This document shows positions 5,758-53,320 of a stretch of DNA of 53,546 nucleotides, piece by piece (positions within the stretch are counted from its first letter, which is position 1; every line of letters starts with the position of its first letter). The position numbers were made by a program, and so were the translations under genes. The notes under the pieces are model-generated. The model worked only from the letters and a program-made list of their open reading frames with translations, was not told the DNA's origin and searched no databases. The stretch is from a virus. Where the stretch lies: the IMG/VR virus record IMGVR_UViG_3300035698_014122, positions 1-53,546 of that record, one strand, 5' to 3'.

Positions 5758-6426
5758 ATGAATTTTGCAGAAGTAATCACTGAAGATTTATTTCTTAATG
5801 AAGCAGCAAGTAATAGTTTGTTGTTATTAGATCTGGACGACACTTTACTTACAGCACAAAACGTATTTGTTTATAGAACTAAGGAACATCCTTCAGGTGC
5901 TGCTAAACTTACTCCACAGCAATACGCAAAAGAGAAAGTAACAGCATCAACGAAAGGATTTTATGACTATAAAGACTTTAGAACTGCTGAAACAGTTGGT
6001 AATTCAATTATTACAGGAATTCCTATTATTAGTAATCTAAAGATGATGGATAGTTATATTAAAAATGGATGGAAGATTGGTATTCTTACTGCTCGCGGTA
6101 TGGAAAACGTAGTATTCAAATCCATTAAAGTTTTCTTGAAGTTCAAAGAAGCTGGAGAGCTGAAAGACATTGGCGATAAATTAGTAAGAGAACTTGTATT
6201 TGCTATCAATGATGATAATAAGAAATACAAAGGAAATACAGACTTTACCAGAAAGAAAAATGTTATGTTGTCTTTACTTGATAAATATGATAGAGTATGG
6301 CTCTTGGACGACGACTTAAAAAATATTAAAGCAATTAACGATTTGAAAACAGAATTGAAAAACAAAAAAGATATTCGACATGGAAAGCTTAGAGCAATTT
6401 TTGCCAAAAAGAAACAGGAGATATAA
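5758..6426 (+). CDS. HAD-superfamily phosphatase with head-targeting leader
   Basis: 222 aa. HAD motif I is LLDLDDTLL (residues 23-31, nucleophile D25 and acid D27), motif II is ILTARG, and the acidic motif IV is WLLDDDLKNI. The first 15 residues (MNFAEVITEDLFLNE before AAS) look like a cleavable capsid-targeting sequence. The enzyme would be a Mg-dependent phosphohydrolase of unknown substrate, possibly nucleotide or nucleic-acid ends. If the leader works as in T4 it is packaged and injected with the DNA. Confidence 0.8.
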   Translation: MNFAEVITEDLFLNEAASNSLLLLDLDDTLLTAQNVFVYRTKEHPSGAAKLTPQQYAKEKVTASTKGFYDYKDFRTAETVGNSIITGIPIISNLKMMDSYIKNGWKIGILTARGMENVVFKSIKVFLKFKEAGELKDIGDKLVRELVFAINDDNKKYKGNTDFTRKKNVMLSLLDKYDRVWLLDDDLKNIKAINDLKTELKNKKDIRHGKLRAIFAKKKQEI

Positions 6427-7663: not shown

Positions 7664-7692
7664 TTGACAATAAAAGAATAATTTAGTATACT
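7664..7692 (+). promoter_or_regulatory. Early-type sigma-70 promoter for the Ro60 gene
   Basis: TTGACA at 7664-7669, a 17-nt spacer, TATACT at 7687-7692, then an AGAGGAG ribosome site. It is the only plus-strand member of a nine-copy family sharing the spacer ATAAAAGAATAATTTAG. Confidence 0.85.
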
Positions 7693-7710
7693 TCTATTAG
7701 AGGAGCAACA

Positions 7711-9225
7711 ATGTCAGACCGCCAGCCAGTGAAGAAGAAGATAATTGTTTATAAAAGGAAGAAGGAAAAAGTTGGGATAACTTATAAAGATATTTTACTC
7801 ATTAGAAAATGGATCTTAACTGGTTCCTTTTCTAATGAGTTATCATCTGATACAAACAAATTAGATTTGAGTAAGTTGTTTTTAATTAAGCAGCTTGCTT
7901 CTAATGAACCTCAGCAATTAAACAAAACTCTATTAGAGTATTCTCAGATTGCTGTAAATAAAGATACTCTAATAACAACTCTTGTAATACTCTCATCAGG
8001 AAACTTTCAAGCTAAACATTGTTTTAGAGAAAGCTTTAATAAAATAATAAAGAGTCCTAACGACCTTTATAGATTTTTATTTATTATGAAGAAGTATCGC
8101 GGTTTAGGAAGTATCATTCACTTGGCTATAAAGAAATGGTTTACGTATAACGACGTAAACTCTTTAGAGAAAATGTTTATAAAAGAACGCTCAAAATATA
8201 CTTGGTCAGGTCAAGACATTATGAGATTGATTAAACCAAAGCCAAGAGACAAGAAAGAAAATCTTTTATTCAAATGGTTAGCGAAAGATAAAATTAATGA
8301 AAATGATATTCAAGATTATAAAACGTATTTACCATTAATTTGTGCTTATGAAGAAATGAGAAGTAATAATTATTCAAAACATATTTATAATTTGATTAAA
8401 AAATATAAGTTTACTTCATTAATGATTCCTGGAAACGTTTATGGTTCAGAAGAATTATTACTTGAATTGCTTAAAGCTAAAACAAATGAAGAGTTAATCT
8501 CTTATTATAAAAATCATGTAACTGATGATATCGTTAATTATGCTGTTAGTAATAGGCTTAAGAGTATCATTAATAACAAAGAAACATTACATATGGAAAC
8601 AATAGAATTAACATCCTTATTAGAGAATATGATTCAAGGTTCTGTTTCGCCTATTATTATTTCTGATATGGAAACTATCATTCATGATAAAATAATAAAA
8701 TCAATATCGACTAATAAGAATGTAGTAAACATTATAGATATGTCAACAGAAATGTTTAGCACTATAAACAACAGCACTAAATTAACTCCTGCTGTTATAA
8801 CTTCTATTCTAACGAGTAAGTGTTCGAGAAACTATAGTCTTTCAGGAATATTTCGAAATAATTTTGACATAAGACCTATAATGGAAGCTGAAGGTAAAAT
8901 AGAGAGAACTGATAGAATTGCTTTTAATACTATTATTAAGAGCGTCGGAGCAGCTCCTGCTGTTGTCTATATTTGGACAAACAAAGTTTTTATAAAAAAT
9001 ATAGAGATAGACGCAAAAAAGTTAAAACTTGAATTTCCGGATTCAACAGTTTGTATCATGAACATGAACGATTCAGTTGTTCATTGTAAATTCAGTAATT
9101 GTTACGTTATTAACGGATTTAATTTTAATACAAAAAAACTAATGAAAGCAGTAGAAAAAGGGAAAGAGGGAAAGAATGAAACAAGAGGGCGGACTATTAA
9201 AAAAAATAGTTCAGAAAGAAACTGA
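7711..9225 (+). CDS. rsr: Ro60 / TROVE-domain RNA-binding protein
   Basis: 504 aa, close to the usual ~520-540 aa of Ro60. The HEAT-repeat TROVE ring shows the diagnostic blocks KKYRGLGSIIHLAIKKWF (127-144) and YTWSGQDIMRLIKPKP (163-178). From about 338 a Rossmann-like VWA domain begins with VVNIIDMSTEMFS; the MIDAS has DxSxE (D343, S345, E347) instead of DxSxS, so metal binding may be altered. Ro60 binds Y RNAs and misfolded RNA ends, and in Deinococcus it couples Y RNA to PNPase for structured RNA decay. It has its own early promoter, unlike neighbouring late genes, so the protein acts early in infection. The last 50 nt overlap the next gene. Confidence 0.82.
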   Translation: MSDRQPVKKKIIVYKRKKEKVGITYKDILLIRKWILTGSFSNELSSDTNKLDLSKLFLIKQLASNEPQQLNKTLLEYSQIAVNKDTLITTLVILSSGNFQAKHCFRESFNKIIKSPNDLYRFLFIMKKYRGLGSIIHLAIKKWFTYNDVNSLEKMFIKERSKYTWSGQDIMRLIKPKPRDKKENLLFKWLAKDKINENDIQDYKTYLPLICAYEEMRSNNYSKHIYNLIKKYKFTSLMIPGNVYGSEELLLELLKAKTNEELISYYKNHVTDDIVNYAVSNRLKSIINNKETLHMETIELTSLLENMIQGSVSPIIISDMETIIHDKIIKSISTNKNVVNIIDMSTEMFSTINNSTKLTPAVITSILTSKCSRNYSLSGIFRNNFDIRPIMEAEGKIERTDRIAFNTIIKSVGAAPAVVYIWTNKVFIKNIEIDAKKLKLEFPDSTVCIMNMNDSVVHCKFSNCYVINGFNFNTKKLMKAVEKGKEGKNETRGRTIKKNSSERN

Positions 9226-11181: not shown

Positions 11182-11889
11182 ATGGCTAAGGCAACAGAAG
11201 TTAAAACTAAAAAGAAACCAAAAAGTAATAACTATTTCGATGAAGAAAAAGTATCGAAATGGATAGTTCAATATCAAAACTCTGCTATAAAAGAAGTTAA
11301 CTCAGAAGGAATAACTGTTGTAGTCTGGAAAGACACTGTGCTTGAAGAGTTGATTATGATAGAAGTAATTAAGATAGTTAAAGCTATCATCCAAGTTTAT
11401 CGCTATTACATATTTGAAGATTACGATGATTGTTTGCAACATGGTGCTATGTCATGCTATCAAAATTTTATGAAATGGACTTCACCTAAAGGAACTTGTT
11501 TTAACTTCTTTTCTATTATATCTAAGAGAAGTTTATTAAATTATACAGACCGAAGAAAGAAGCACAGAAACCATAACGACATTGCCGATCAGATACAATT
11601 GTATGATCACAACACGATGAACTTTGATTTTTATTTAGAAGAAGTTCAAGGAACTCTTATTGATATTGTAAACAATAACTTCATTGGCAAGAAGAGAAAA
11701 AGGTTTGTATCAATTTCTTTAATTCTTATTGATTACTTAGGTAAGACAAAGAAGTTTGTAAGTAAAACTGATTTTTATTCTTGGGCTCGTTCCTATGGAA
11801 TGAGAAGTATTGATATAAGAGAATTTATGAAAGCAATGAGAGAACATGGTCATGAATTATTTGGTGATGCCGAGAACGACTTGCTGTAA
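11182..11889 (+). CDS. 55: gp55-like late transcription sigma factor
   Basis: 235 aa. The central block YDDCLQHGAMSCYQNFMKW, then KGTCFNFFSIISKRSLLNYTDRRKKHR, resembles sigma-70 region 2 as reduced in T4 gp55-type late sigma factors (aromatic-rich melting segment followed by a basic stretch). The N-terminal 20 residues are basic. In T4 this factor directs RNA polymerase to late promoters with a DNA-loaded sliding clamp. It probably reads the GTAAAGRTAAT motif repeated in this window. Confidence 0.65.
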   Translation: MAKATEVKTKKKPKSNNYFDEEKVSKWIVQYQNSAIKEVNSEGITVVVWKDTVLEELIMIEVIKIVKAIIQVYRYYIFEDYDDCLQHGAMSCYQNFMKWTSPKGTCFNFFSIISKRSLLNYTDRRKKHRNHNDIADQIQLYDHNTMNFDFYLEEVQGTLIDIVNNNFIGKKRKRFVSISLILIDYLGKTKKFVSKTDFYSWARSYGMRSIDIREFMKAMREHGHELFGDAENDLL

Positions 11890-14463: not shown

Positions 14464-15246
14464 TTAGGAAAGAATTCCGTAAACAACCATATTAGCTTTT
14501 GCAAGAGCAGAAGAATCTGTTCCAGTAAGTGCAACACGAACATATTTTCCAAGGCCTTCAGTATATTCAACTTCAATATAAACTGGGCCGTTTGTATCAA
14601 CAACAACCAAACCGTTTGTAACGTCAGCCGCTAAATCAAACCATCTTACATTATCAATAGAAGTCTGAACTTTATATCCAATAGTCGTACCAACAGTAAT
14701 ATCAGAACTATCAGGAACGATAATTACGATACCTGCATAATCTAAATGAGCAGGAGTTGCTAAACTTAAAGCTGCTGTAACCTGAGTGGTTGCGCCAGAA
14801 AGATTTGCTGCAATCGTAGTAGCAGCTGTAATTTCTTTAATTACACTCTGAACTTCTTCTTCAACAACAAGGTCAACCTGTGCGCCGTGAGTTGCAGTAA
14901 GAGCACCAAAAGCATCAAAAATTCCGTCAACTCTAATTCTTGGAATTAAACTTCCTAAAGAAACTCTTGAACTAATTGCGCCGTCTGCTCCACCTGTTAA
15001 AGTTTCATCTTCATTAATTGCGTAATAAGTTGTTCCACCGTCCCAACTACCATAACTTGTAATAGTTAAATCGTCAGTTACAGCGTCTCCGTCTAATGCT
15101 GAAATTAACAATGTCGTTGCGCCGAAAGTATTTGCTTCATATAAAGCAACTACATCACCTGTAATTGTTGCTACACCAGCAGCTTTTGTTGCAGGAAATG
15201 TAATCACGTCTTCGTAAAATGCTTTTCTTAATCTTTTATCTACCAT
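14464..15246 (-). CDS. Virion structural/decoration protein candidate
   Basis: 260 aa, rich in Ala, Thr, Val and Gly with beta-strand alternation and no charged clusters, typical of phage surface proteins. The last 100 residues (VPDSSDITVGTTIGYKVQTSIDNVRWFDLAADV...YVRVALTGTDSSALAKANMVVYGILS) resemble Ig-like or discoidin-type domains of virion proteins. It is transcribed alone from the minus strand behind a GTAAAGATAAC motif and a CAAGGAG ribosome site, and ends at a terminator. An outer capsid decoration role is inferred. Confidence 0.6.
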   Translation of the reverse strand: MVDKRLRKAFYEDVITFPATKAAGVATITGDVVALYEANTFGATTLLISALDGDAVTDDLTITSYGSWDGGTTYYAINEDETLTGGADGAISSRVSLGSLIPRIRVDGIFDAFGALTATHGAQVDLVVEEEVQSVIKEITAATTIAANLSGATTQVTAALSLATPAHLDYAGIVIIVPDSSDITVGTTIGYKVQTSIDNVRWFDLAADVTNGLVVVDTNGPVYIEVEYTEGLGKYVRVALTGTDSSALAKANMVVYGILS

Positions 15247-16743: not shown

Positions 16744-19700
16744 TTGGCACTTTCCAGAGAAGAGGCGAAGTTCGTAAACTCGATAAAGAATAAAATAAAA
16801 ACATATAATATCAGAACAACAATAAAAGAAGCTGTTGGTTATAGTGCTGACTATTTGGTTAATACTATTTATAATTCAGATAGTATAGAATTAGTAGATA
16901 TGGGAATTGAAATGTTTCTTATTAAGAAGTCATTCTCTTATTTCTTAAGCCAATATGGTAGAGTAGATATTCCAGGATTAGGAACTATTAAAATGGAACC
17001 ATATTACTTTCAAGCAGAAGTCTCAAAAGAAATAATGGATTATAGAAAAGTGGTTCTTGATAAAACAAGACAGTGCTTAACAGAAGAAAATTTTGTTATG
17101 ACAGATCGTGGATATATATCCATTAAAGACGTAAAGCCTGGTGATATGATTGAAACTATTATTAATGGAAAATCATCTTTTACGTTAGTAGAGAATTTCT
17201 ATAATCAAGGAAAGAAAAAAATATGTAGAATTTTAACTAATTCTGGAGCTGATATTAAATGCACTTTAGACCATAAAATAATGACAAAAGAAGGGTGGAA
17301 AGAAGCTGGAGATTTATCATTAAATGATGAAATAACGTCATTAATAAATAAAGGGACTTTTGGAAACTACAGATTAGAAGATGATAAACATGTTGCTTTA
17401 ATAGGATACTATTTAGCAGATGGAAGAGCTTCTCAGCCAAGTTTTGTAAATACTAATTTAACTTATATTAATGAAGTTTTAGAAGCCGGAGAAACATTTA
17501 AGAATTGTGAACCTTATATATATAAAAGACCAGAAGATAAAACAAGAAAACAAGGTTATGATGTTAGACTTGTATCTAAATCAAAAGGTAAAATGTATAG
17601 ACCTATATTAGATTTTATGAAAGAACATAACTTAAGTAAAAAATCTAATGACAGAATATTAACAAAAAACTTAATGAATTTAAATAAACATCAAATGTCT
17701 ATACTATTAAATAGATTGTTTGCTGGAGATGGATACATTACATACCAAAAAGACAAAAGAAGACCTAACTATATTCAATATGAAATAGGATTAGGTGCGC
17801 CTAATTTTACATTGGTCAAGCAATTAGAATATATATTACAAACTAAATATGGAATACACTGTTGGATAGACGAACAGTTTGATAAGAGATTTACTCAAAG
17901 ATTTTGGAAAATAAGAATAACTCAAAAAAAATCAGTAATTAAATTTGTAAATGAAATAGGAATAAAAGATAAAACAGATACAAAAGAGATGATTGATTTA
18001 ATCTCTAAAGAAAAGCCATACAATACAAACCAATCATTTGAGAAGATAAGAAAAATAGAGAAGAAGAATAAGAAAGAATTAGTGTATGATATAACAACTT
18101 TTACAAATGATTTTTTAACTAATGGGTTGTTAGTTCATAATTGCGGCATTTCTACTATCTTTGCTTTATATAGCTTTTGGAGAGCTCACTTCTTTACCGC
18201 TGAATCAATTGATGTAGTTTCAATTAAACAAAAGAAAGCACAACAATTCGTTAAGAAAATAAGTTCTACTATGTTGAGTTTACCTGAATGGATGAGAACT
18301 CCTATAAAATATCAGAACCAACAAGAAATCACTTTTGATCACGGTGCATCAACTTCAACTATATTATCAGAATCACAATCAGAAAATGCTGGTCGTGGTG
18401 ATTCTTTATCAGTATTGATTTTAGATGAAGTTGCCCATTATCAATCAGAAAAAATGGTTAGAGGAATTATAGCATCTGCGCGACCAACCCTAGACAAAAC
18501 TGGTGGACAGATCGTATTGATCTCTACACCTAATGGTGTGTCGGGTAAAGGCGCTTATTATTACGAACAAGTAGTTAATGCAAGAAGTGGAATTAAAGAC
18601 ACAAAGTATCTTGAGATTGATTGGTGGGAAGTTCCTGATGATCCTCGTATATCTGGTGCAAAGAAAGGATATAATGATATTCTTGAGAAAGCTATTAAAG
18701 AAGGATACTATTATAATTTAAACATTAAAAAGAAATATAAGGATTATTTTGATCCAATTGCAAGAAATAACTTTTTAGATAATGAATGGTTAAAATCATC
18801 TCATGATGATCTTAATGCTGCTGGATATAGACAAGAAGTTTTACATGATTTTATTATTGGTGGAGACAAAGTATTCTCGGAAGAGATACTTAAAAATGTT
18901 GAAGATAGGTGTAAAGAACCAATCCTTAAAGATATCTTAGGAACTTCTGAGTATGAAGGATTTTGGACATGGAAGAAACCTATTCCTGGTCATAGATACA
19001 TTCTTGGTGCTGATATTTCAACAGGAACAGGTAATGACTATTCATCATTAGAAATAATGGATGTTGCAGATGACGAACAAGTTGCAGAATATAAAGGACA
19101 TATGTCTACTCCAAACTTTGCCAGATTTTTAAAGAAGGTTGCAAATTATTATAATGAAGCCTTCGTAGTAATAGAATCTAACAGCATCGGAGAAGCTGTG
19201 TTTAATGCAGTATATTATTCTGAAGTAGATCCTTATCAAAATGTATATAAACAAAAGAAAACAAAAAATGGTGTAACCAGAATGACTGGTTGGGTAACAG
19301 ATGTTAAAACGAGAAAGCTTCTAACGAATGATTTCATAGATTGGATTTCTGTTCCTGAGTTATTTGACAGTATAAAGATTTACAGTAAAAGATTATGGAT
19401 GGAATTAACTACTTGGATTTGGGCTGGCGGAAATAAACCAGATCATAGCGGAGGATGTGTTTCTGAAAATACAATAATTACTTGTGAAGATGGATTTAAA
19501 GAAATAAAAGACATAAAGATTGGAGATAAAGTATTAACTCATACTGGGGATTTTAAAAAAGTTTACAATACTTTTAAGTTTAAAGATGAAAGTAAGAAAA
19601 TGTTAGAGGTAAAATCTTGGGGATGCGAAAGAATAAATATAACTTCAAACCAAGAATTTTATTTAAATGAAGGAGAGTTTAAAAATTTTGATGATATTTA

Positions 19701-20781
19701 TGATTATAGAAATATAAAATCTAATTCTACATATAGTAGAAAAGTTAAACCTTGTGAGTTAAATAAAGATGAATTATTTTTATTTTTTATAGGACATGTT
19801 TTATCAGATGGAACAATTTCTAAAAAAAATAATATTACTATAACAAGCGAAAATAAAGAAAGTATTATAATCTTTGAAAAATATTACAATTATTTTAAAG
19901 ATAAAGTTGAAAATTTATATATCTCTGAATATCCAAAAGAACAATTTAGAAGATTTACGATTAAAGATAAATCACTATGGAATACTCTAAATGAAATTGG
20001 AGTCTCAAAAGATAAAAATATTCCATTAAGTTTAAGATATATAGAGCCAAATTTACAAAAAAATATTTTATATGGATACTTATTTGGAGATGCTTGCTTT
20101 ACGCCAAGCAAAACAGGAAAAATAACAGCTAATTCTATATCATATAATTTATCATATTTTATATCATCTATTTTATTTAGAAATAATATATCTTTTAACT
20201 TAAATAAACAATACCCAAAAAGATATGGAGAAGATACAAATCCTCAGTGGAGTATTTCTATATTAGGAAAAGAATGCTTAAAGATATTCGAAAATAATTT
20301 TAAAGACATTTTTAGTTTAAAAAATAATTATAAACAAACTTATAGCTTTATTAACTCTAAAAAACAGAAAAAAACTTCAAAGTTAAGAAATTATAATAAT
20401 GATTTTTTACAAAGTAGTATAAGCTCAGTTAAAAGAGTTAAATGGAATGATTATTATTATGATATTTCTGTAGAAGAAGACCATTCTTATGTTGCAAATG
20501 GATATACAGTTCATAATTCGCACGATGATAGTATCATCGCTTTCTCATTAGCCATTTATAACAAGAGCAAAGCAGTTATGTCTGGTGATTCATTCCTCAT
20601 AACTGATGATGGTGAAGTTGTAGCTATGGATAGTAAAGATAATACTGATGAAGTTAAAGCAAGTAATACTATTGAAGAATTTGACATCATTGAATCTGGA
20701 ACAGTTGATCCAGATGAGTTTCAGGATCGTTATGGTTGTTCGAAAGAAGAATATGATTGGTTGATAGGAAGTATAAATTGA
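16744..20781 (+). CDS. 17: Terminase large subunit (gp17-like) with two inteins
   Basis: 1345 aa precursor from a TTG behind AAGGATTAAC; about 635 aa after removal of both inteins, near the usual gp17 length. ATPase: the P-loop DKTRQ/CGISTIFALYSFW is interrupted by intein 1, and Walker B is LSVLILDEVAHY. Nuclease: ILGADISTGTGNDYSSLEIMD carries the first Asp, FVVIESNSIG the Glu, and SHDDSIIAF the last Asp pair, interrupted just before by intein 2. It powers DNA packaging and cuts concatemers at the portal. The stop overlaps the next TTG start. Confidence 0.92.
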   Translation: MALSREEAKFVNSIKNKIKTYNIRTTIKEAVGYSADYLVNTIYNSDSIELVDMGIEMFLIKKSFSYFLSQYGRVDIPGLGTIKMEPYYFQAEVSKEIMDYRKVVLDKTRQCLTEENFVMTDRGYISIKDVKPGDMIETIINGKSSFTLVENFYNQGKKKICRILTNSGADIKCTLDHKIMTKEGWKEAGDLSLNDEITSLINKGTFGNYRLEDDKHVALIGYYLADGRASQPSFVNTNLTYINEVLEAGETFKNCEPYIYKRPEDKTRKQGYDVRLVSKSKGKMYRPILDFMKEHNLSKKSNDRILTKNLMNLNKHQMSILLNRLFAGDGYITYQKDKRRPNYIQYEIGLGAPNFTLVKQLEYILQTKYGIHCWIDEQFDKRFTQRFWKIRITQKKSVIKFVNEIGIKDKTDTKEMIDLISKEKPYNTNQSFEKIRKIEKKNKKELVYDITTFTNDFLTNGLLVHNCGISTIFALYSFWRAHFFTAESIDVVSIKQKKAQQFVKKISSTMLSLPEWMRTPIKYQNQQEITFDHGASTSTILSESQSENAGRGDSLSVLILDEVAHYQSEKMVRGIIASARPTLDKTGGQIVLISTPNGVSGKGAYYYEQVVNARSGIKDTKYLEIDWWEVPDDPRISGAKKGYNDILEKAIKEGYYYNLNIKKKYKDYFDPIARNNFLDNEWLKSSHDDLNAAGYRQEVLHDFIIGGDKVFSEEILKNVEDRCKEPILKDILGTSEYEGFWTWKKPIPGHRYILGADISTGTGNDYSSLEIMDVADDEQVAEYKGHMSTPNFARFLKKVANYYNEAFVVIESNSIGEAVFNAVYYSEVDPYQNVYKQKKTKNGVTRMTGWVTDVKTRKLLTNDFIDWISVPELFDSIKIYSKRLWMELTTWIWAGGNKPDHSGGCVSENTIITCEDGFKEIKDIKIGDKVLTHTGDFKKVYNTFKFKDESKKMLEVKSWGCERINITSNQEFYLNEGEFKNFDDIYDYRNIKSNSTYSRKVKPCELNKDELFLFFIGHVLSDGTISKKNNITITSENKESIIIFEKYYNYFKDKVENLYISEYPKEQFRRFTIKDKSLWNTLNEIGVSKDKNIPLSLRYIEPNLQKNILYGYLFGDACFTPSKTGKITANSISYNLSYFISSILFRNNISFNLNKQYPKRYGEDTNPQWSISILGKECLKIFENNFKDIFSLKNNYKQTYSFINSKKQKKTSKLRNYNNDFLQSSISSVKRVKWNDYYYDISVEEDHSYVANGYTVHNSHDDSIIAFSLAIYNKSKAVMSGDSFLITDDGEVVAMDSKDNTDEVKASNTIEEFDIIESGTVDPDEFQDRYGCSKEEYDWLIGSIN
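17074..18141 (+). mobile_element. Intein 1 with LAGLIDADG endonuclease, in the terminase P-loop
   Basis: Residues 111-466 (356 aa). Block A CLTEENFVMTDRGYISIKDV with Cys1; block B CTLDHKIMT; LAGLIDADG motifs LIGYYLADGR and LNRLFAGDGYI; C-terminal block LTNGLLVHN followed by Cys+1. Splicing restores TRQCGISTI. The endonuclease domain appears intact. Confidence 0.93.
19456..20517 (+). mobile_element. Intein 2 with LAGLIDADG endonuclease, in the terminase nuclease motif
   Basis: Residues 905-1258 (354 aa). Block A CVSENTIITCEDGFKEIKDI; LAGLIDADG-type motifs FFIGHVLSDGTI and LYGYLFGDACF; C-terminal VEEDHSYVANGYTVHN followed by Ser+1. Block B reads INITSNQEFYL, with Gln where a His is usual. Splicing restores GG-SHDDSIIAF, the metal-binding nuclease motif. 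Confidence 0.9.
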
Positions 20782-21212
20782 TACTTGACATTGACGGAAT
20801 AAAAGTATTAGAAAGTAAGCCTAATTATGGAACTAATTATAAATTTGATGATACCAGAGGAAATGAAATAAATTTAGACTTAACAGAATTAACTATGGAT
20901 GATTTTTATTATTTTAGTATAGACATGGATGATTTTGAAGAATATGAAATAATCAAAGATTATGATGTAGAAGATATAGTTGGTTATGATTGGGATATAA
21001 AACTTAATGGTAATAAAGCAAACGTTAGGTTAATCTTTAACACTATTGAAAAGATTGGAAAGAGATATACTGGAATTTATTATCCGAACATTATGTATTA
21101 TAGATACACGGATGATAGGATGCATCGACACTACAGAGATTGGATTAAATTCATGGGTTATGAGTTAGTTTTCGAAAAAAATCTTGCTGTATATTATAGA
21201 GAGAAAACATGA
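20778..21212 (+). CDS. Hypothetical protein downstream of terminase
   Basis: About 144 aa from a TTG at 20778 that overlaps the terminase stop (TTGA) and follows AGGAAG; an upstream TTG at 20757 is in frame but less well placed. Acidic N-terminal half, and a C-terminal segment HYRDWIKFMGYELVFEKNLAVYYRE that resembles the end of GNAT-type acetyltransferases. That resemblance is weak and I assign no function. Confidence 0.6.
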   Translation: MILDIDGIKVLESKPNYGTNYKFDDTRGNEINLDLTELTMDDFYYFSIDMDDFEEYEIIKDYDVEDIVGYDWDIKLNGNKANVRLIFNTIEKIGKRYTGIYYPNIMYYRYTDDRMHRHYRDWIKFMGYELVFEKNLAVYYREKT

Positions 21213-21643
21213 AATACAAAAACAAGACTGATGAAAGATTAAAAGAACGATTAGGAAAGAAGATTAATAGTACTGATAGAATTATTTCAGCTAACAAGAT
21301 GAAAAAGATAAAATCATCTTCTAATTCTGCCAGCTTCAACATTGGAAGAATTGTTAATAAAACTGGTGAATATGATAAAGCAATTGATAAAGTTGAAGAC
21401 AAGATGGTTAAGAAAGAAGAGCCAAAAGAAGAAGTAATAGATGCATCAGTACCAAAGGCGTATCGAAAAGGCGAGATCACTTATATAAAATATGCAGGAA
21501 AAGATGTTCCTGTTAGTAAACTATTAGTGTTGGCGCAACAAGATAGTAAAATAAATAATTTAGTAAAAAACATTAATAAGAATAAAGCGAAAGCTAACTT
21601 TCAAGGTTCGTTTCCAGAATTTGTTCTTAACCAATACGCTTAG
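21209..21643 (+). CDS. Hypothetical basic protein between terminase and portal
   Basis: 144 aa, Lys-rich, with a coiled N-terminal half and a folded C-terminal segment (RKGEITYIKYAGKDVPVSKLLVLAQQ). Its ATG overlaps the previous stop. Unknown family; position suggests a head-assembly accessory. Confidence 0.65.
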   Translation: MKYKNKTDERLKERLGKKINSTDRIISANKMKKIKSSSNSASFNIGRIVNKTGEYDKAIDKVEDKMVKKEEPKEEVIDASVPKAYRKGEITYIKYAGKDVPVSKLLVLAQQDSKINNLVKNINKNKAKANFQGSFPEFVLNQYA

Positions 21644-21652
21644 GAGTAAAGT

Positions 21653-23554
21653 ATGCCACTTATAGATGGAGTTGAAGTATTTGTTGATGAGAAGACTGCC
21701 AGAAGAATACAGACAGAAATAAATGCAGTTCCTGATTTAAGTCAGGACTTAAAGACAGATATTGATCCAAAAAAAATAGATTTAACTGACCAGATACAAG
21801 ACGGATCTGACTTCGGTATATTCTTTGATGAAACAGAATATGGCGAAAACGGTTCCTTAAACTCAAGAAGAGATTCCTATGATACATATAAAGAAATGGA
21901 TGGAATGGAATTTATTCATAGAGGTGTTGAAATAATAGCAGATGATTCATCTCAGCCTAACTCTGATGGTGATGTAATGAAGTTTTATTCTGATGATGAA
22001 AACTCTAAAGATGTTCTTGATGAATTATTTATTAAGAAGTTAGACATGAATAATGAACTTTGGTCTATATTTTATGAAACAGTCAAGATGGGTGATAATT
22101 TCTATGAGATTATACCAGATGATTATAAAAAGCCAAAAGAGGTTCGTCGGATTAGGTATCTCGAACCTGATAAAATGGAACGAATAGAAAAAGATGGAAA
22201 ACTTTCTCACTTCACTTATAAAGTAATAAAGAAAGAAAGAGGTTCTACTAACGTATCAGAAACTCAAGAGTATAGACTATTTCCTTGGCAGATAATTCAC
22301 TTTAAGATTGAGAACAAATCTCATGCTCCTTACGGAGGAAGTTTATTAGAAGCTGGAGTTAGAACATTCCGAAGACTTGTTATGTTAGAAGACCTAATGC
22401 TTGTTTATAGAATAAGCAGAGCACCAGAAAGAAGAGTTTTCTACATAGACGTTGGTAACTTAAATGCAGTTGAAGCTAAAAGATTTTTAACGAAGATGAA
22501 GAACGCATATCGTTCACAATCTTTCATTGATGAGAATGGTAATATAAATAAAAAAGCAAACGTAATGTCGATTACATCTGATATTTTTGTTCCTGTTAGA
22601 GAGGGACAAACTGGTACGAGAATAGATACGCTTCAAGGTGGAGCTGCTATGGGAGCTTCAGGAAGCGAAGATCCGTTATTGAAATACTTTAAGAATAAAA
22701 TTCTAAAGACGATGAATATTCCGCCATCTTATATGGGTGAATCAGCAGACAACAGTAGAAGTCTTTCAACTATAGATCAGAAATTTGGTAGATTTATTGA
22801 GAGAGTTCAGTCTCAAATAATACAAGGATTGAATAAAATAGCTGCACTTGAATTGTTCTTTAGGGGATATAAAAAAGAAGATTTAAACAACTTTAAGATT
22901 GAGCTTACTCCTCCATCAAATGTAAAAGAGATTACTGAAATTGAACTTATCAATCAGAGAATGACTTTGATTGCAACTATTCAGCAGTTAAATCTTTTCC
23001 CTAACGAGTGGATATTCAAAAACATTTTGAAGTTTTCTGATAAAGAAGTTGCTGATGTTATAATGAAGAAGAAACTTGAAGGAAACGAAGCCGCAGCAGG
23101 TGGAATGGCCGGAGCGGCCGCAGCTGGTGGTGCTATGGGAGATATGGGTGGTATGGAAATACCAGCAGAAACTCCTCCAGCGGAAGGTGAAGCTCCAGCA
23201 GCGGCACCAGAAGAATTAGCTGCAAATACTATTATAAATATGTTTGGAAAAGATTTCTTGATAGAAAGCAAAGAAGACTTCTTTCAATTGGTTAAAAATT
23301 CTAATGAATATAATAAGCCAACTAAGTTAGCACCTATGTTTGAAGCAGCTTCTGAGTTTATCCTTAGAGATTTGAACATCAAAAACAATAAAACTAATAG
23401 AAATAACTTTGTTGCATTATCTAATTTGAATGAGTTCAAGGGAATCGATTTTAATGACAGAAACATTCGTCTTTGGGAAAAGGACGAAAATGGAACAAAG
23501 GAAAACCTCAACGAATTAACTGTTGAGTGTGGAGTTAAGGCATTAAATGGATAA
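21653..23554 (+). CDS. 20: Portal protein (gp20-like)
   Basis: 633 aa. Strong gp20 signature around residues 240-275, with LEDLMLVYRISRAPERRVFY followed by IDVGNLN and a FLTKMKNAYR helix. The later DTLQGGAAMG and LKYFKNKILKTMNIPPSYMG blocks also match. The protein forms the dodecameric ring at the head vertex where terminase docks. The C-terminal 150 residues include an Ala/Gly/Pro-rich low-complexity stretch (about 478-525) not usual in T4. A TAGGAG ribosome site precedes ATG. Confidence 0.93.
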   Translation: MPLIDGVEVFVDEKTARRIQTEINAVPDLSQDLKTDIDPKKIDLTDQIQDGSDFGIFFDETEYGENGSLNSRRDSYDTYKEMDGMEFIHRGVEIIADDSSQPNSDGDVMKFYSDDENSKDVLDELFIKKLDMNNELWSIFYETVKMGDNFYEIIPDDYKKPKEVRRIRYLEPDKMERIEKDGKLSHFTYKVIKKERGSTNVSETQEYRLFPWQIIHFKIENKSHAPYGGSLLEAGVRTFRRLVMLEDLMLVYRISRAPERRVFYIDVGNLNAVEAKRFLTKMKNAYRSQSFIDENGNINKKANVMSITSDIFVPVREGQTGTRIDTLQGGAAMGASGSEDPLLKYFKNKILKTMNIPPSYMGESADNSRSLSTIDQKFGRFIERVQSQIIQGLNKIAALELFFRGYKKEDLNNFKIELTPPSNVKEITEIELINQRMTLIATIQQLNLFPNEWIFKNILKFSDKEVADVIMKKKLEGNEAAAGGMAGAAAAGGAMGDMGGMEIPAETPPAEGEAPAAAPEELAANTIINMFGKDFLIESKEDFFQLVKNSNEYNKPTKLAPMFEAASEFILRDLNIKNNKTNRNNFVALSNLNEFKGIDFNDRNIRLWEKDENGTKENLNELTVECGVKALNG

Positions 23555-27388: not shown

Positions 27389-28894
27389 ATGTATTTAGAT
27401 AGAAATGCACGTCTTCAAGAAGAAGCTAATATGACTGGAAACTGGTCATGGTTAACAGAAGGACTTGAAGATAAAGATGAAATAGTTAATACGTCAATAG
27501 TTTTACAGAACTCTTACGAGTCCATGATTGCTGAAGGACAATTAGCTGAAGGTTGGTTAGAAGCTCTTCTTAACGAAGATGAAATAAATGAAGCACCTCA
27601 GACTTCCACAGCAGTTGGAACAAATGTAATTCCAAAAGTTTTATTCCCAGTAATCAGACGAGTTATGCCTGCACTTATTGCTAATCAGTTAGTATCTGTA
27701 CAGCCAATTACCGCAAGAACCGGTATTATTTATAATATCGCTTATACATTTTCTGATTCAAAAGGAGATATTAGTGCTGATGATGAATATACAGGTAACG
27801 TAACTTTGGGTTCCCCAGGTTTCTCTACTTTCTATTCAAGTGAAAGAATTGGCCCATTTACTGCTACTGTAAATAGTACAGATGATACTGATGATGACAT
27901 TGCTGCTAATACGTTGACATTTTTCGGAACAACGATTGCAGATTTTGAAATTAAAAGAATAGAAGTTTATTCAGCAGCTGGAATAAGATTAACAACAATT
28001 CTTGATACAGTTGACGGAGCAACTCCAGGTTGGGAAGTATCTAATTCAAATGTTGGTTATGATGCATCTACCGGAGATATCGTTCTTAAATCAGCAGAAA
28101 CCGCAGATGTTCCTTGGGCAGCAGGTGATGTACTTACAGTATTCTTGGTTTATAATCAGGAAGGTTCCAGTAAAATTCCTGAGATGGAATTCAGTATCAA
28201 CAGTCAGACTGTTGACACGACTGAAAGAAAATTAAAGATCAGATGGACAAAAGAAGCTGAACAGGATATGAAAGCTTTCCATAAGATCGATGTAGAAAGT
28301 GAACTTGTAAAAGTTGCTTCTATGGAAATGAATTATGAAATTGACCGTGAACTTCTTACTTATATTAGTGATACGGTTACTGACGAACTTTCGTTCACTC
28401 ATAATTGGTTAGATGACGCATCCGTAACTGGAAATAATACTACTGGTAACTATTTAGATAGACACCGAGCACTTTCACAGAAAATCGCAATGGTTTCTGC
28501 AAAAGTTGCACAGTATAATAGACAGGGTGCAGCAAACTGGGCAGTGGTTTCACCACAAGTGGCATCAGTACTTGCAATGCTTCCTAACTTCAAAGGCGAA
28601 ATTGCTGGAAATAGCTTGAACGTAACTCAGGCTGGTGTTCTTGGTGGAAATATCAAGATTTACATCGATCCTAATAATTCTTCTAGCGAAATTCTTATGG
28701 GTTATAAGAGTAATTCTTCAACCTACGGCGCTGGTGTAGTTTATTCTCCATATACAAATTGGATGAGTAATACTGTTACACATCCTGATAACTTTAACTC
28801 TATCAGAGGGTTCTTCTCTCGATACGCAGTAACGAAAGTTGTTAGAGGACAGTGGTTCTACGCAAAACTTAACGTAACCGGACTTACTTTCTAA
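27389..28894 (+). CDS. 23: Major capsid protein (gp23-like)
   Basis: 501 aa, HK97 fold of the T4 type. VLFPVIRRVMPALIANQLVSV followed by QPITARTG is the family hallmark (residues about 87-115). The N-terminal 66 residues are an acidic delta domain ending ALLNEDEINE|APQTS, a convincing gp21-type cleavage site. KLKIRWTKEAEQDMKAFHKIDVE and the C-terminal RGFFSRYAVTKVVRGQWFY strands are also typical. A TGGAGG ribosome site follows an AT-rich segment with AGATAATATATTAT. Confidence 0.93.
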   Translation: MYLDRNARLQEEANMTGNWSWLTEGLEDKDEIVNTSIVLQNSYESMIAEGQLAEGWLEALLNEDEINEAPQTSTAVGTNVIPKVLFPVIRRVMPALIANQLVSVQPITARTGIIYNIAYTFSDSKGDISADDEYTGNVTLGSPGFSTFYSSERIGPFTATVNSTDDTDDDIAANTLTFFGTTIADFEIKRIEVYSAAGIRLTTILDTVDGATPGWEVSNSNVGYDASTGDIVLKSAETADVPWAAGDVLTVFLVYNQEGSSKIPEMEFSINSQTVDTTERKLKIRWTKEAEQDMKAFHKIDVESELVKVASMEMNYEIDRELLTYISDTVTDELSFTHNWLDDASVTGNNTTGNYLDRHRALSQKIAMVSAKVAQYNRQGAANWAVVSPQVASVLAMLPNFKGEIAGNSLNVTQAGVLGGNIKIYIDPNNSSSEILMGYKSNSSTYGAGVVYSPYTNWMSNTVTHPDNFNSIRGFFSRYAVTKVVRGQWFYAKLNVTGLTF

Positions 28895-30426: not shown

Positions 30427-30595
30427 TTTTAGTTACCTCTTCCCAATATTTTTTTACAATAAACTTCATAGGTTTATTACATATGTGACAAAAGTCAACA
30501 ACACATTTAAGTTTTTTCTGGCTTTTGCTTATCCATATAAAATTTCTTTTATGACCACATTCTCCAACTGCATAAAAATCATGTTTATAACTCAT
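30419..30595 (-). CDS. Small zinc-finger-like protein
   Basis: 58 aa. AVGECGHKRNF with FCHICNKPMKF gives a C-x-H and C-x2-C type metal site. Its ATG overlaps the stop of the AAA ATPase gene and its own stop overlaps the next start. Function unknown. Confidence 0.6.
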   Translation of the reverse strand: MSYKHDFYAVGECGHKRNFIWISKSQKKLKCVVDFCHICNKPMKFIVKKYWEEVTKNE

Positions 30596-31740
30596 AACAT
30601 ATAATCCTTACTATTTCCAGCTTCTTTTGCTTTATTAGCTCCGCTCACCTTATTCTTAATTATACTAATTATTTCTTTTATTGTCAAGTTTTCTTCTGAG
30701 AACTTATAAATGTTTATATCATCACAAATTCCTTTTAAGGTTGCGTAAGAGATATCAGCATTTAATAAAGATAAATGCTCAATCATTTTTGTGAAATATT
30801 CATTCTCTTCTGGAATATATGCTTTGAAAAATTCCAAATAATTTTCTTTAGTTGGAAGATTATAGTCAAAAACTTTATCTATTCTTCCTGGTCGTATGAA
30901 AGCACTATCAAACATATCTATATTGTTAGTAGTGAATATAGAAACAACATCGTTAATCTCTTCTACACCCTCAAGTGTATTTAAGATAATTCCAAGTATT
31001 TCACTTGGAGAGTTATGTGTTTCAGTTCTTTCCATAATAGCTGCGTCAAAGTCTTCAAATACAAATATCTTTTTTCCTTCTTCGTAGTATTCATCTATAT
31101 CGTTAAGAAATTCCTTAACTGTTTTGAACTGATGATATGCTATTCCTTTTTTTGTTGCTTCGTTTCTTAACCACTGTAAAGTTAAAGTTTTTCCAGTTCC
31201 TGGCTGTCCTTGAAGAGCAATGCCTCTTTTGAGCTTTATGTGCTTATCTCTACAATAACTTCTAAACTCTTCGTTTTCAAGAAATTCAATTGTTTCTTTT
31301 TGAATTTTTTCAAAGTCAAATCCAATAATAGGAATACTTTCATTAAACTTAAAGTTTTTCTTTTCCTCTCTTTCTTTAAGCTCTTTTAGAATCAGTTCCA
31401 TTTCTGATGTTCTACCAAGCAAGAAATCATAAGCTCTATCAAATGTAAAAGGAGTAACGAATTTAATAAAGCTCATATCGTTTATAGTGCAATAGTTTAT
31501 ATCAGAAATGACATGTTTTCTGTCTTCTTTTAAGCTATAATCTTGTATGAATTTAACCTTATAGTCAAAATCGCTATTAAATTTATTATACTTTAATACG
31601 TTCGTTGGTTCACTTTTAATAGAATCAACAAACTCATCACTTTCAGCAAAAAAGCTTACTGTTAAATTATATTCTCCATCAAAAAAATCTGCAATTTCTT
31701 TTCCGTAATTATCAAATACGAATTTTAATATATCATCCAT
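30592..31740 (-). CDS. AAA+ ATPase (FtsH/BCS1-like AAA module)
   Basis: 382 aa. The N-terminal 160 residues are unfamiliar. The AAA domain has Walker A GQPGTGKTLTL, Walker B FVFEDFDA, sensor 1 IFTTNN and arginine-finger block RPGRIDKVFDY. The arrangement is that of classical AAA remodelling ATPases such as BCS1 or FtsH, without a protease or membrane part. The 3' end of the gene contains an early-type promoter in the same direction. Confidence 0.85.
   Translation of the reverse strand: MDDILKFVFDNYGKEIADFFDGEYNLTVSFFAESDEFVDSIKSEPTNVLKYNKFNSDFDYKVKFIQDYSLKEDRKHVISDINYCTINDMSFIKFVTPFTFDRAYDFLLGRTSEMELILKELKEREEKKNFKFNESIPIIGFDFEKIQKETIEFLENEEFRSYCRDKHIKLKRGIALQGQPGTGKTLTLQWLRNEATKKGIAYHQFKTVKEFLNDIDEYYEEGKKIFVFEDFDAAIMERTETHNSPSEILGIILNTLEGVEEINDVVSIFTTNNIDMFDSAFIRPGRIDKVFDYNLPTKENYLEFFKAYIPEENEYFTKMIEHLSLLNADISYATLKGICDDINIYKFSEENLTIKEIISIIKNKVSGANKAKEAGNSKDYML
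30659..30687 (-). promoter_or_regulatory. Early-type sigma-70 promoter inside the AAA gene
   Basis: TTGACA at 30687-30682, a 17-nt spacer, TATAAT at 30664-30659, within the AAA coding region (about residues 352-361) and pointing at the small downstream genes. The spacer is rearranged slightly (AAATAATTAG). Confidence 0.75.
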
Positions 31741-50240: not shown

Positions 50241-50325
50241 AAAAAAAGTGTAGCGAATAAATGATTGTTCTCAAGTTTGAAGGGGGATAAACAAACTAAG
50301 GAAAATGAACAATCACAGCTACACT
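50241..50325 (-). ncRNA. Structured small RNA with three nested stems and a poly-U end
   Basis: Read on the minus strand: AGTGTAGC (50325-50318) pairs with GCTACACT (50254-50247); TGATTGTTC with GAACAATCA (9 bp); AGTTTG with CAAACT; the apical loop is TTTATCCCCCTT, and the 3' end runs into seven T. The long end-to-end helix, pyrimidine-rich loop and U tail recall Y RNAs in shape, but the bulged Ro-site sequence is absent. It may equally be an elaborate terminator for the upstream gene. A GTAAAGATAAC motif lies just upstream at 50358-50348. Confidence 0.6.
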
Positions 50326-50354: not shown

Positions 50355-50558
50355 TTACTTTACTGGAACTTTTGGTTTAACTTCATATTTATTTTTAGCC
50401 CAAGCTTCAATCTGTTCCATGTCTTCCATTAATTGTTTAATGTCATCATTACGAACAGTAACTGTCCAGTTATAACCTTTTGTGTTTTTGGTTACTTCAA
50501 GCTTATATGTTTTAGGAAGTTCTACTTCATTTTCTCCACCAGTTTCTACTTTATCCAT
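50355..50558 (-). CDS. Hypothetical protein, 67 aa
   Basis: A compact beta-rich core (YKLEVTKNTKGYNWTVTVRND) followed by a helix (IKQLMEDMEQIEAWAKNKY). It lies directly behind an early promoter with an AAGGAG ribosome site. This shape is common among small early phage proteins; function unknown. Confidence 0.65.
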   Translation of the reverse strand: MDKVETGGENEVELPKTYKLEVTKNTKGYNWTVTVRNDDIKQLMEDMEQIEAWAKNKYEVKPKVPVK

Positions 50559-50575: not shown

Positions 50576-50604
50576 ATTATACTAAATTATTCTTTTATTG
50601 TCAA
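50576..50604 (-). promoter_or_regulatory. Early-type sigma-70 promoter
   Basis: TTGACA at 50604-50599, 17-nt spacer, TATAAT at 50581-50576. Drives the 67-aa gene and probably the structured RNA beyond it. Confidence 0.87.
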
Positions 50605-52457: not shown

Positions 52458-52478
52458 TACTTTTCCTTATTTTCATAT

Positions 52479-52549
52479 CGGGCCATGTAGGAATTGAACC
52501 CACATCAAAAGGGTTGGAATCTCTTATGCTACCGTTACACCAATGACCC
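52479..52549 (-). tRNA. tRNA, Trp (CCA) or Gly (TCC)
   Basis: 71 nt. Acceptor GGGTCAT/ATGGCCC, D-arm with AACGGTA, T-arm GTGGG-TTCAATT-CCTAC. The loop can be framed as TTCCAAC (CCA, Trp) or ATTCCAA (TCC, Gly), each with one stem mismatch. The D-stem and the G discriminator favour Trp. CCA is not encoded. Confidence 0.8.
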
Positions 52550-52555
52550 ATATTT

Positions 52556-52663
52556 TTATACTTTTTTTTCTTTTTTCCCTTTATAAAAAACTATTAAAGC
52601 GTGTGATACAAACCCTAAAGTTACCGACAATGTAATTATAATTAGTAATAATCCAAACGGCAT
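52556..52663 (-). CDS. Very small membrane protein, 35 aa
   Basis: MPFGLLLIIITLSVTLGFVS, then HALIVFYKGKKEKKV: one membrane helix with a strongly basic end. GAAGGAGA ribosome site one codon after the previous gene's stop. Unknown. Confidence 0.6.
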   Translation of the reverse strand: MPFGLLLIIITLSVTLGFVSHALIVFYKGKKEKKV

Positions 52664-52664
52664 T

Positions 52665-52769
52665 TTATTCTCCTTCTCGACCTTCGTGCGAAACAACTAA
52701 TAAAGCACATGCCATAAATCCTACAGCTCCACTTAATCCCATTAAACAGAAAGCTAACCACAATGCCAT
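52665..52769 (-). CDS. Very small membrane protein, 34 aa
   Basis: MALWLAFCLMGLSGAVGFMA, then CALLVVSHEGREGE: one membrane helix with an acidic end. AAGGAG ribosome site. It pairs with the next small membrane gene in the tRNA operon. Confidence 0.6.
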   Translation of the reverse strand: MALWLAFCLMGLSGAVGFMACALLVVSHEGREGE

Positions 52770-52789
52770 AAATACTCCTTATAAAATAT

Positions 52790-52869
52790 ACCAAAGAAGG
52801 GAATCGAACCCTTAAACCTTTCGATACTAGTTCTTAAAACTAGCGCGTTTACCGTTTCGCCACTCTGGC
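52790..52869 (-). tRNA. tRNA-Leu (TAA)
   Basis: 80 nt class II tRNA. Acceptor GCCAGAG/CTTTGGT, anticodon stem CTAGT/ACTAG with loop TTTAAGA (anticodon TAA), long variable arm, T-arm AAGGG-TTCGATT-CCCTT, discriminator A. Confidence 0.9.
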
Positions 52870-52877
52870 TTGAAAAT

Positions 52878-52958
52878 TACCAATGAAGGGATTCGAACCC
52901 ATACACCTCTCGGCACTAGTTTCTAAAACTAGCATGTCTACCGTTCCAACACATTGGC
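52878..52958 (-). tRNA. tRNA-Leu (TAG)
   Basis: 81 nt class II tRNA. Acceptor GCCAATG/CATTGGT, anticodon stem CTAGT/ACTAG with loop TTTAGAA (anticodon TAG), long variable arm, T-loop TTCGAAT. Confidence 0.9.
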
Positions 52959-52962
52959 ATGA

Positions 52963-53104
52963 AGAAGATTTAATCCCTGTTTTTGCTTCGAATAACCAGA
53001 GCTACACGCATTGCTTGACTAGCAGCTTGACGTATAATTTCATCACAAAATTATACCGCTTTAGTCCAAGGTGGATGCTTTCAGACCTTTACCAACTATC
53101 TTCT
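52963..53104 (-). ncRNA. tRNA-like structured RNA in the tRNA operon, permuted Y-RNA candidate
   Basis: 142 nt on the tRNA strand, 4 nt from the next tRNA. Ends pair as AGAAGAT/ATCTTCT like an acceptor stem; TTGGTAAAGGT resembles a D-loop, and TTCGAA sits in a T-arm-like hairpin (CTCTG/CAGGG). In place of an anticodon arm is a long helix: GCAT/ATGC, then CTTG(G)ACTA paired with TAGTCAAG with one bulged base, capped by GTATAATTT/AAATTATAC around a 7-nt loop. The bulged CUUGACU-type helix resembles the Ro60-binding site of Y RNAs, and bacterial YrlA RNAs combine such a site with a tRNA-like domain. I find no usable anticodon. The identification is tentative. Confidence 0.45.
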
Positions 53105-53171
53105 GAATAAATTTTACGTTAGTTTAGGGAGCTACAAAAAAATATTCATAAACGATCACTCCAATTTTATA

Positions 53172-53261
53172 TACGGATGGTGGGAATCGAACCCACGATG
53201 TTTACCTCTCGGGTATGAGGTTTTAAGCCTCATGCGTTTTAACCAGCTTCGCCACATCCGC
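53172..53261 (-). tRNA. tRNA-Leu (TAA), second copy
   Basis: 90 nt class II tRNA. Acceptor GCGGATG/CATCCGT, anticodon stem TGAGG/CCTCA with loop CTTAAAA (anticodon TAA), long variable arm, T-arm GTGGG-TTCGATT-CCCAC. First gene after the promoter. Confidence 0.92.
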
Positions 53262-53291
53262 AAATCTTAACCTACCACTCAGCCATACATA

Positions 53292-53320
53292 ATTATACTA
53301 AATTATTCTTTTATTGTCAA
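53292..53320 (-). promoter_or_regulatory. Early-type sigma-70 promoter for the tRNA operon
   Basis: TTGACA at 53320-53315, 17-nt spacer, TATAAT at 53297-53292. Two bases upstream on this strand is a 38-bp palindrome. Confidence 0.88.

What the first reader, a model, noticed from the sequence alone, without database searches (positions are those of the whole stretch)
7664..9225. Phage-encoded Ro60 under its own early promoter, with a candidate partner RNA in the same genome
Seen: a 504-aa TROVE protein with a consensus early promoter, set among late-type genes. Known: Ro60 proteins work with Y RNAs and, in Deinococcus, with PNPase in structured-RNA decay; Y RNAs have been reported near Ro60 genes in bacteria and some phages. 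Inferred: early expression plus a tRNA-like RNA with a Ro-site-like helix in the phage tRNA operon suggest a phage RNP that redirects host RNA decay or surveils phage tRNAs. The MIDAS is altered to DxSxE.
Basis: partly seen in the sequence, partly recalled or inferred. Interest (0 to 1): 0.9.

Follow-up and report, generated by a model that had tools for sequence, protein, structure and literature searches.

The report
Phage Ro60 protein with conserved RNA
This phage carries its own version of Ro60, a protein known from human lupus research that binds small RNAs, switched on by an early-type promoter, and close relatives share a matching small structured RNA, so the phage probably builds its own RNA-protein particle for handling RNA during infection.

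Summary
Window 7711-9225 encodes a divergent Ro60 (TROVE) protein. Annotated phage Ro proteins match it, and its model matches Deinococcus Rsr at Z 19 over 413 residues, with Ro60/TROVE chains filling the top ten rows. A perfect sigma-70-type promoter lies directly upstream and is conserved in all four members of its clade. It is the only such promoter on the structural-gene strand of the window. The MIDAS is lost in the whole clade (DMSTE, DMSNN, DMNTN, DMSHR), while a more distant clade-mate keeps an intact one.

Of the two proposed partner RNAs, 52963-53104 fails: it folds no better than chance and is not conserved. The other, 50241-50325 (-), is a real RNA. Two relatives carry it with three covarying base pairs, a fixed pyrimidine loop and a U7 tail; one has the early promoter directly upstream, and that 201-kb genome also encodes Ro60, RtcB, an Rnl2-type ligase and a tmRNA. 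Its bulged-stem architecture resembles Y RNAs, but Ro60 binding is not shown.

Phage Ro60 itself is already known. New here are the MIDAS-less branch, its early promoter and a Y-like RNA without a tRNA-like domain.

The parts
7664..7692 (+). Early-type sigma-70 promoter of the Ro60 gene (TTGACA-17-TATACT)
   Evidence: Exact 27-mer shared with 53294-53320 and 50578-50604 (-). The same promoter class lies directly upstream of the Ro60 gene in G001, G024 and G023. Only + strand copy in the window.
7711..9225 (+). Ro60/TROVE-family protein, 504 aa
   Evidence: tblastn to annotated phage Ro proteins; Xenopus Ro60; Ro60 chains fill the top structure ranks; orthologues in G001, G024, G023 at 44-46% identity.
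7783..8703 (+). Alpha-solenoid (HEAT-like) ring region, residues 25-331; best conserved at residues 95-190
   Evidence: Secondary structure of model m97db7b622e14; alignment A5.
8713..9174 (+). vWA-like alpha/beta domain, residues about 335-488
   Evidence: the aligned range with Ro60 chains reaches residues 461-485.
8737..8751 (+). Degenerate MIDAS DMSTE (canonical DxSxS)
   Evidence: Relatives DMSNN, DMNTN, DMSHR; intact DVSGS in G022.
50241..50325 (-). Conserved structured RNA, Y-RNA-like: 8-bp stem, asymmetric bulge, 9-bp stem, 6-bp apical stem, pyrimidine loop UUUAUCCCCCUUC, U7 tail
   Evidence: Homologues in G023 and G025; covariation at three pairs; fold z -6.4 to -6.9.
50576..50604 (-). 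Early-type promoter upstream of the 67-aa gene and the RNA
   Evidence: Exact 27-mer.
50355..50558 (-). 67-aa ORF between that promoter and the RNA
   Evidence: Same order in G025. In G023 the promoter lies directly in front of the RNA.
53292..53320 (-). Early-type promoter of the tRNA operon, identical to the Ro60 promoter over 27 nt
52478..53262 (-). tRNA operon: Leu(taa), Leu(tag), Leu(taa), Trp(cca)
5758..6426 (+). HAD-type phosphatase / polynucleotide-kinase-like protein two genes upstream; possible RNA-end processing (inference)
   Evidence: PHROG 415 polynucleotide kinase E 3.3e-6; 70% identical in G023; also present in G017, where no Ro60 was found.

Best explanation
A T4-like phage encodes an early-expressed Ro60-type ribonucleoprotein. 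The Ro60 protein is an alpha-solenoid ring plus a vWA-like domain that has lost its metal site. It is made from its own early promoter while most neighbouring genes on its strand are structural. It most likely binds a phage-encoded Y-like RNA (50241-50325, -) through that RNA's bulged lower stem, and the complex handles cleaved or misfolded tRNAs and other structured RNAs during infection, alongside phage tRNAs and, in the fullest relative, RtcB, an Rnl2-type RNA ligase and tmRNA. Shown by sequence: protein family, promoter, MIDAS loss, and the RNA's existence as a conserved structure. Inferred: early timing, protein-RNA pairing, and role.
For: Protein. Promoter: conserved in four clade members and the only one of its class on the structural strand; identical to the tRNA-operon promoter. 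RNA: three homologues, covariation GC/UA/AU, GC/AU/AU and UA/CG/UA, fold z -6.9, -3.8, -4.7; in G023 a promoter stands directly in front of it; downstream genes differ, so it is not a leader of one gene. Ro60 and the RNA co-occur in both held records that reach both loci, the window and G023; G025 does not cover the Ro60 locus. Clade-mate G022 has a canonical Ro60 inside a tRNA array with four hairpins sharing GCUGA/ACUUGC at a bulged stem; 4 found, 0.045 expected. RNA repair set in G023: RtcB and Rnl2-type ligase, tmRNA.
Against: No binding or expression data. The window RNA's bulge (5' UG, 3' UUUAUUC) is not the canonical Ro site: the G022 RNAs read UGA opposite CUU, and vertebrate sites have a 1-nt bulge opposite 3 nt. 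The covariance model of this RNA scores the G022 RNAs only at noise level (21.5 bits against 21.6 for a spurious hit). Only three RNA homologues exist, so covariation is limited (26 of 500 shuffles reach the score). Two loci pairs is a small co-occurrence sample. A C-rich loop and U-tail also fit a UCCC-type regulatory RNA. The window is a fragment, so its own RtcB or ligase is unseen.
Confidence: 0.55

Rival explanations
1. The 50241-50325 RNA is an independent phage regulatory RNA whose exposed UCCCCC loop pairs with G-rich ribosome-binding sites of host or phage mRNAs. The Ro60 protein acts separately, with other RNAs.
For: The loop UUUAUCCCCCUUC is the best conserved part. AAGGGG-type ribosome-binding sites recur downstream of the phage's early promoters (sequences printed). 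C-rich-loop small RNAs are common in Firmicutes (own knowledge).
Against: The asymmetric bulged lower stem is conserved too, which such RNAs do not need. Vertebrate Y RNA loops are also pyrimidine-rich (PMC4726728).
Confidence: 0.25
2. The hairpin is only an unusual intrinsic terminator or attenuator of the short gene before it or the gene after it.
For: It ends in U7 and in the window and G025 lies just downstream of a small early gene.
Against: In G023 no gene lies between the promoter and the hairpin. The genes after it differ among the three genomes. The loop sequence and internal bulge are conserved, which a terminator does not require.
Confidence: 0.12
3. The Ro60 protein works on RNA without a dedicated phage Y RNA: it binds misfolded host or phage RNAs, or uses host PNPase, and its degenerate vWA domain is vestigial.
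For: Ro60 binding to misfolded RNA is largely sequence-independent (PMC4726728). The Y-binding histidine (H187 of vertebrate Ro60, own knowledge) is Lys175 here (alignments).
Against: Ro60 orthologues in all organisms studied bind Y or Y-like RNAs (PMC4726728), and G022 has four Y-like hairpins. K170 and R174 counterparts (K158, K162) and a basic residue at 175 are kept in the window protein.
Confidence: 0.2
4. The partner is the tRNA-like RNA at 52963-53104.
For: It lies between two tRNA genes under the same promoter as the Ro60 gene; a short GGUCUGAAAG...CCUUGGACU match to a Ro site.
Against: Fold z -0.32; no homologue in G023, G015 or G025; no Rfam hit; the equivalent tRNA gap in G015 holds an ORF.
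Confidence: 0.04

Closest known systems
Phage Ro-like RNA-binding proteins (mycobacteriophages Myrna and Phabba, Gordonia phage Forza, Microbacterium phages Cece and A3Wally, Agrobacterium phage Atu_ph07, Sinorhizobium phage Phosso)
   Same: Homologous over the ring region; several lie beside tRNA clusters.
   Different: They keep a canonical MIDAS (DxSGSM). The window clade is about 16-20% identical to them over the full alignment, lacks the MIDAS and carries its own early-type promoter.
Thermus phage phiLo Ro60 (PDB 9L5Y)
   Same: Phage-encoded Ro60 with a solved structure; the model aligns at Z 14.9.
   Different: 14% identity.
Deinococcus radiodurans Rsr, Y RNA and PNPase
   Same: Closest solved fold (Z 19.0). 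A Ro60 plus small structured RNA is the same kind of pairing.
   Different: No PNPase domain found in any relative; MIDAS lost.
Salmonella rsr-yrlBA-rtcBA RNA repair operon (PMC7790460)
   Same: Ro60 occurs with RtcB; G023 encodes both.
   Different: In G023 the genes are about 60 kb apart. The Y-like RNA here has no tRNA-like module.
Listeria phage CKA15 Rsr and abundant putative Y RNAs (PMC12282133)
   Same: Lytic phage with an Rsr-like gene and highly transcribed RNAs proposed as Y RNAs.
   Different: There the RNAs lie within 2 kb of the gene and their identity is left open; here the RNA is 41 kb away and its structure is supported by covariation.

Membership tests
Ro60 / TROVE protein family | Sequence homology to Ro60 | tested here: met
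   Pfam TROVE not reached directly but reached by the homologue G022.
Ro60 / TROVE protein family | HEAT-like alpha-solenoid ring followed by a vWA domain | tested here: met
   Model with pLDDT 70; Ro60/TROVE chains fill ranks 1-10, Z 14-19 over about 400 residues.
Ro60 / TROVE protein family | MIDAS DxSxS...T...D in the vWA domain (a feature of most members, role not established; not required for filing here) | tested here: not met
   DMSTE, and later Thr/Asp motifs absent, in all four clade members. Filed as a MIDAS-less branch of the family.
Ro60 / TROVE protein family | Binds Y RNA | not testable with these tools
   Needs a binding assay.
Y RNA (50241-50325) | Small structured non-coding RNA with paired ends | tested here: met
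   Covariation and folding.
Y RNA (50241-50325) | Ro-binding site: about 7-bp helix with a 1-nt bulge opposite a 3-nt bulge (vertebrate definition, PMC4726728) | tested here: inconclusive
   8-bp helix with 1-2 nt opposite 6-7 nt: the same kind of asymmetry, but larger and of different sequence.
Y RNA (50241-50325) | Encoded with a Ro60 gene | tested here: met
   Both present in the window and in G023, 41 kb and about 38 kb apart; G025 does not cover the Ro60 locus.
Y RNA (50241-50325) | Bound by Ro60 | not testable with these tools
   Needs pull-down.
YrlA (tRNA-mimicking Y RNA), for 52963-53104 | Conserved tRNA-like module plus Ro stem | tested here: not met
   z -0.32, no homologues, ARAGORN and Rfam negative.

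The most novel reading that the evidence does not exclude
One branch of phage Ro60 proteins has lost its vWA metal site and its Y-binding histidine and has co-evolved with a new class of Y RNA that has no tRNA-like domain and a re-shaped Ro site; protein, RNA and phage tRNAs are switched on by one early promoter class and work with phage RtcB and an RNA ligase to keep tRNAs functional against host tRNA-cutting defences.
Probability: 0.35. Interest if true: 0.75.

Novelty: new variant of a known kind. Interest (0 to 1): 0.58.

Why it matters
What phage Ro60 proteins do is unknown. This clade offers a defined, testable pair: one protein and one 85-nt RNA with conserved structure, under an early-type promoter shared with the phage tRNAs. 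The natural loss of the vWA metal site in a conserved branch would suggest that the site is dispensable for the phage role, an open question for Ro60 in general.

Tried and rejected
The 52963-53104 tRNA-like RNA: fold z -0.32, no Rfam match at E up to 10 beyond neighbouring tRNAs, no homologue in G015, G023 or G025; the G015 gap holds an ORF. Direct Pfam TROVE match: none. First structure model from four sequences was poor (pLDDT 57); replaced by the five-sequence model. First covariance model R1 used a helix shifted by one column (seen); replaced by R2. R2 as a bridge to the G022 hairpins: its top two hits in 20 kb of G022 fall on two of the four, but control stretches give similar scores (21.6 and 16.6 bits), so this is not proof. 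A covariance model of the G022 hairpins was not built because their second stems do not align in register. A relaxed two-helix descriptor hit only the window RNA and one G022 hairpin among the contigs held then, but it was designed with the candidate in view and is not counted as evidence. A relaxed DNA pattern for more RNA homologues gave three false hits. T4-type late promoters (TATAAATA) are not found upstream of the + strand genes, so 'late' rests on gene content and strand only. No close bacterial relative of the clade protein in genome contigs (the pattern prefilter can miss relatives). PNPase-type domain: absent from seven related records, most of them fragments.

Full report
THE OBSERVATION. 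The ORF at 7711-9225 (+) is 504 aa, with a good ribosome-binding site and a perfect sigma-70-type promoter at 7664-7692. tblastn against annotated phages finds only proteins called Ro-like RNA-binding protein, RNA-binding protein or, once, Clp protease-like, with E-values down to 4e-11; phmmer finds Xenopus Ro60 (7e-4) and, weakly, Deinococcus Rsr (0.11). Pfam TROVE is not reached directly. The link is completed by a clade-mate, G022 (IMGVR 3300022555_000119): it aligns to the window protein at E 6e-29 and itself scores TROVE 3e-24 and vWA_Ro60 2e-30.

STRUCTURE. A model from five clade sequences (pLDDT 70, pTM 0.49) has an all-alpha solenoid at residues 25-331 and an alpha/beta domain after it. 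In Foldseek every chain below E 0.001 is Ro60 or TROVE. The second aligner puts Deinococcus Rsr first at Z 19.0 over 413 residues, and the top ten rows are all Ro60/TROVE; the next row has Z 7.8 and matches the C-terminal domain only. One of the hits is a solved Ro60 of Thermus phage phiLo (PDB 9L5Y), so phage Ro60 is not new.

MIDAS. The window reads DMSTE. Syntenic orthologues at 44-46% identity in G001, G024 and G023 read DMSNN, DMNTN and DMSHR; the later Thr and Asp motifs are gone as well. G022 keeps DVSGS, GGTD and TDNE. The metal site was thus lost in this branch while the ring, residues 95-190 above all, stayed conserved. At the position of vertebrate His187 (important for Y RNA binding, own knowledge) the four clade proteins have lysine and G022 has histidine.

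PROMOTER. The 27-mer in front of the gene is identical to that of the tRNA operon (53294-53320, -) and of the 50355-50558 gene. Of nine such promoters in the window, eight are on the minus strand and only this one is on the plus strand, which carries structural genes; in the 201-kb relative G023 (IMGVR 3300033146_004404) the split is 39 to 3, and the Ro60 promoter is among the 3. The promoter is conserved directly upstream of the Ro60 gene in G001, G024 and G023. G017, a more distant relative, holds homologues of flanking genes but no Ro60 in its 63.9 kb, and G022 has its Ro60 elsewhere, in a tRNA array. The gene thus behaves as an accessory unit that brings its own promoter. Early timing is inferred from promoter type; T4-type late promoters were not found upstream of the neighbours.

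PARTNER RNA, CANDIDATE 1 (52963-53104, -). Its fold is no better than shuffles (z -0.32). Rfam and ARAGORN give nothing. It has no homologue in G015, G023 or G025, which carry related tRNA clusters, and the equivalent gap of G015 holds an ORF. I reject it.

PARTNER RNA, CANDIDATE 2 (50241-50325, -). It folds far better than shuffles (z -6.4; -6.9). A closely similar RNA was found in G023 at 42937-43020 (+) and in G025 (IMGVR 3300033146_003054) at 21842-21926 (-). In all three the structure is an 8-bp stem (one mismatch in G023), a short 5' and long 3' bulge, a 9-bp stem, a 6-bp apical stem, the loop UUUAUCCCCCUUC and a U7 tail. Three pairs change on both sides and stay paired: GC/AU/AU, GC/UA/AU and UA/CG/UA; 96% of cells are paired in register, against at most 53% when slid. 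In G023 an early promoter (42892-42918) stands directly in front of the RNA with no gene between; in the window and G025 a 67-aa gene or its homologue lies between. The genes after the RNA differ, so it is not simply the leader of one gene. The place in the genome (between the tRNA cluster and the tail-sheath gene) is the same in all three.

IS IT A Y RNA? For: it has the general plan of Y RNAs (paired ends, asymmetric bulge above a 7-8-bp stem, pyrimidine-rich loop, U-tail; PMC4726728; the U-tail from own knowledge). Both held records that reach both loci, the window and G023, have Ro60 as well. G022, with a canonical Ro60, has four hairpins next to tRNA genes that share GCUGA on one side and ACUUGC on the other at the bulge; 4 were found where 0.045 are expected, and two stand directly before the tRNA-Trp and Ro60 genes. 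Against: the window's bulge sequence differs (GCUG opposite UUCGC), and the covariance model does not tell the G022 hairpins from noise by score. I put the probability that the window RNA is a Ro60 partner at about 0.55-0.6.

CONTEXT AND MECHANISM. G023, the longest relative, encodes RtcB (20674-21813, E 1e-54), an Rnl2-type RNA ligase (31033-31539), 21 tRNA genes and a tmRNA besides Ro60 and the RNA. In Salmonella the Ro60-Y RNA genes lie in the RtcB operon that responds to cut tRNAs (PMC7790460); jumbo-phage surveys already list TROVE proteins with RNA repair genes (PMC7824862). The likeliest role is therefore protection, repair or clearance of cut and misfolded tRNAs and other structured RNAs during infection. 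PNPase redirection remains possible through the host enzyme only: no related record has a PNPase-type domain.

NOVELTY. Phage Ro60 proteins, and the idea that phages carry Y RNAs, are in the literature (PMC12282133; PMC7765460). New here are a MIDAS-less branch, its conserved early-type promoter, and a structurally supported Y-like RNA without a tRNA-like domain. I file the protein as a variant member of the Ro60 family and the RNA as a candidate Y RNA, not an established one.

Noticed in passing
G022 (IMGVR_UViG_3300022555_000119) 642-769, 11647-11714, 14705-14773, 14792-14851; Ro60 from about 14995: Four Y-RNA-like hairpins with a shared GCUGA/ACUUGC bulge next to tRNA genes, two of them just before the tRNA-Trp and canonical Ro60 genes; a Ro60/Y-RNA/tRNA locus in a phage related to the window.
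   Followed up: partly
G023 (IMGVR_UViG_3300033146_004404) 20674-21813, 31033-31539, 32523-32807: RtcB, an Rnl2-type RNA ligase and a tmRNA (tag DETETYYAQVA) in or beside the phage tRNA array.
   Followed up: partly
window 16744-20781 (+): Large terminase gene carrying an intein with a LAGLIDADG domain (residues 144-466) and a second Hint-like segment near residue 900.
   Followed up: no
window 36686-39169 (-): ATPase gene with an N-terminal Hint/LAGLIDADG intein-like insertion (residues 76-351); relatives match mainly from about residue 400 on.
   Followed up: no
G023 27434-27508; G025 42227-42300: ARAGORN calls tRNA-Pyl (anticodon CTA), that is amber-suppressor-like tRNAs, while 6 of 67 window ORFs still end in TAG; possible partial stop-codon recoding in the clade.
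   Followed up: no
window 30592-31740 and 33215-34831 (-): A MoxR-like AAA ATPase and a VWA-like (DUF2201) protein close together, a second vWA-type protein in the phage (weak match).
   Followed up: no
window 11182-11889 (+): Weak match to T4-type late sigma factor (PHROG 234), although no TATAAATA late promoters were found upstream of structural genes.
   Followed up: no
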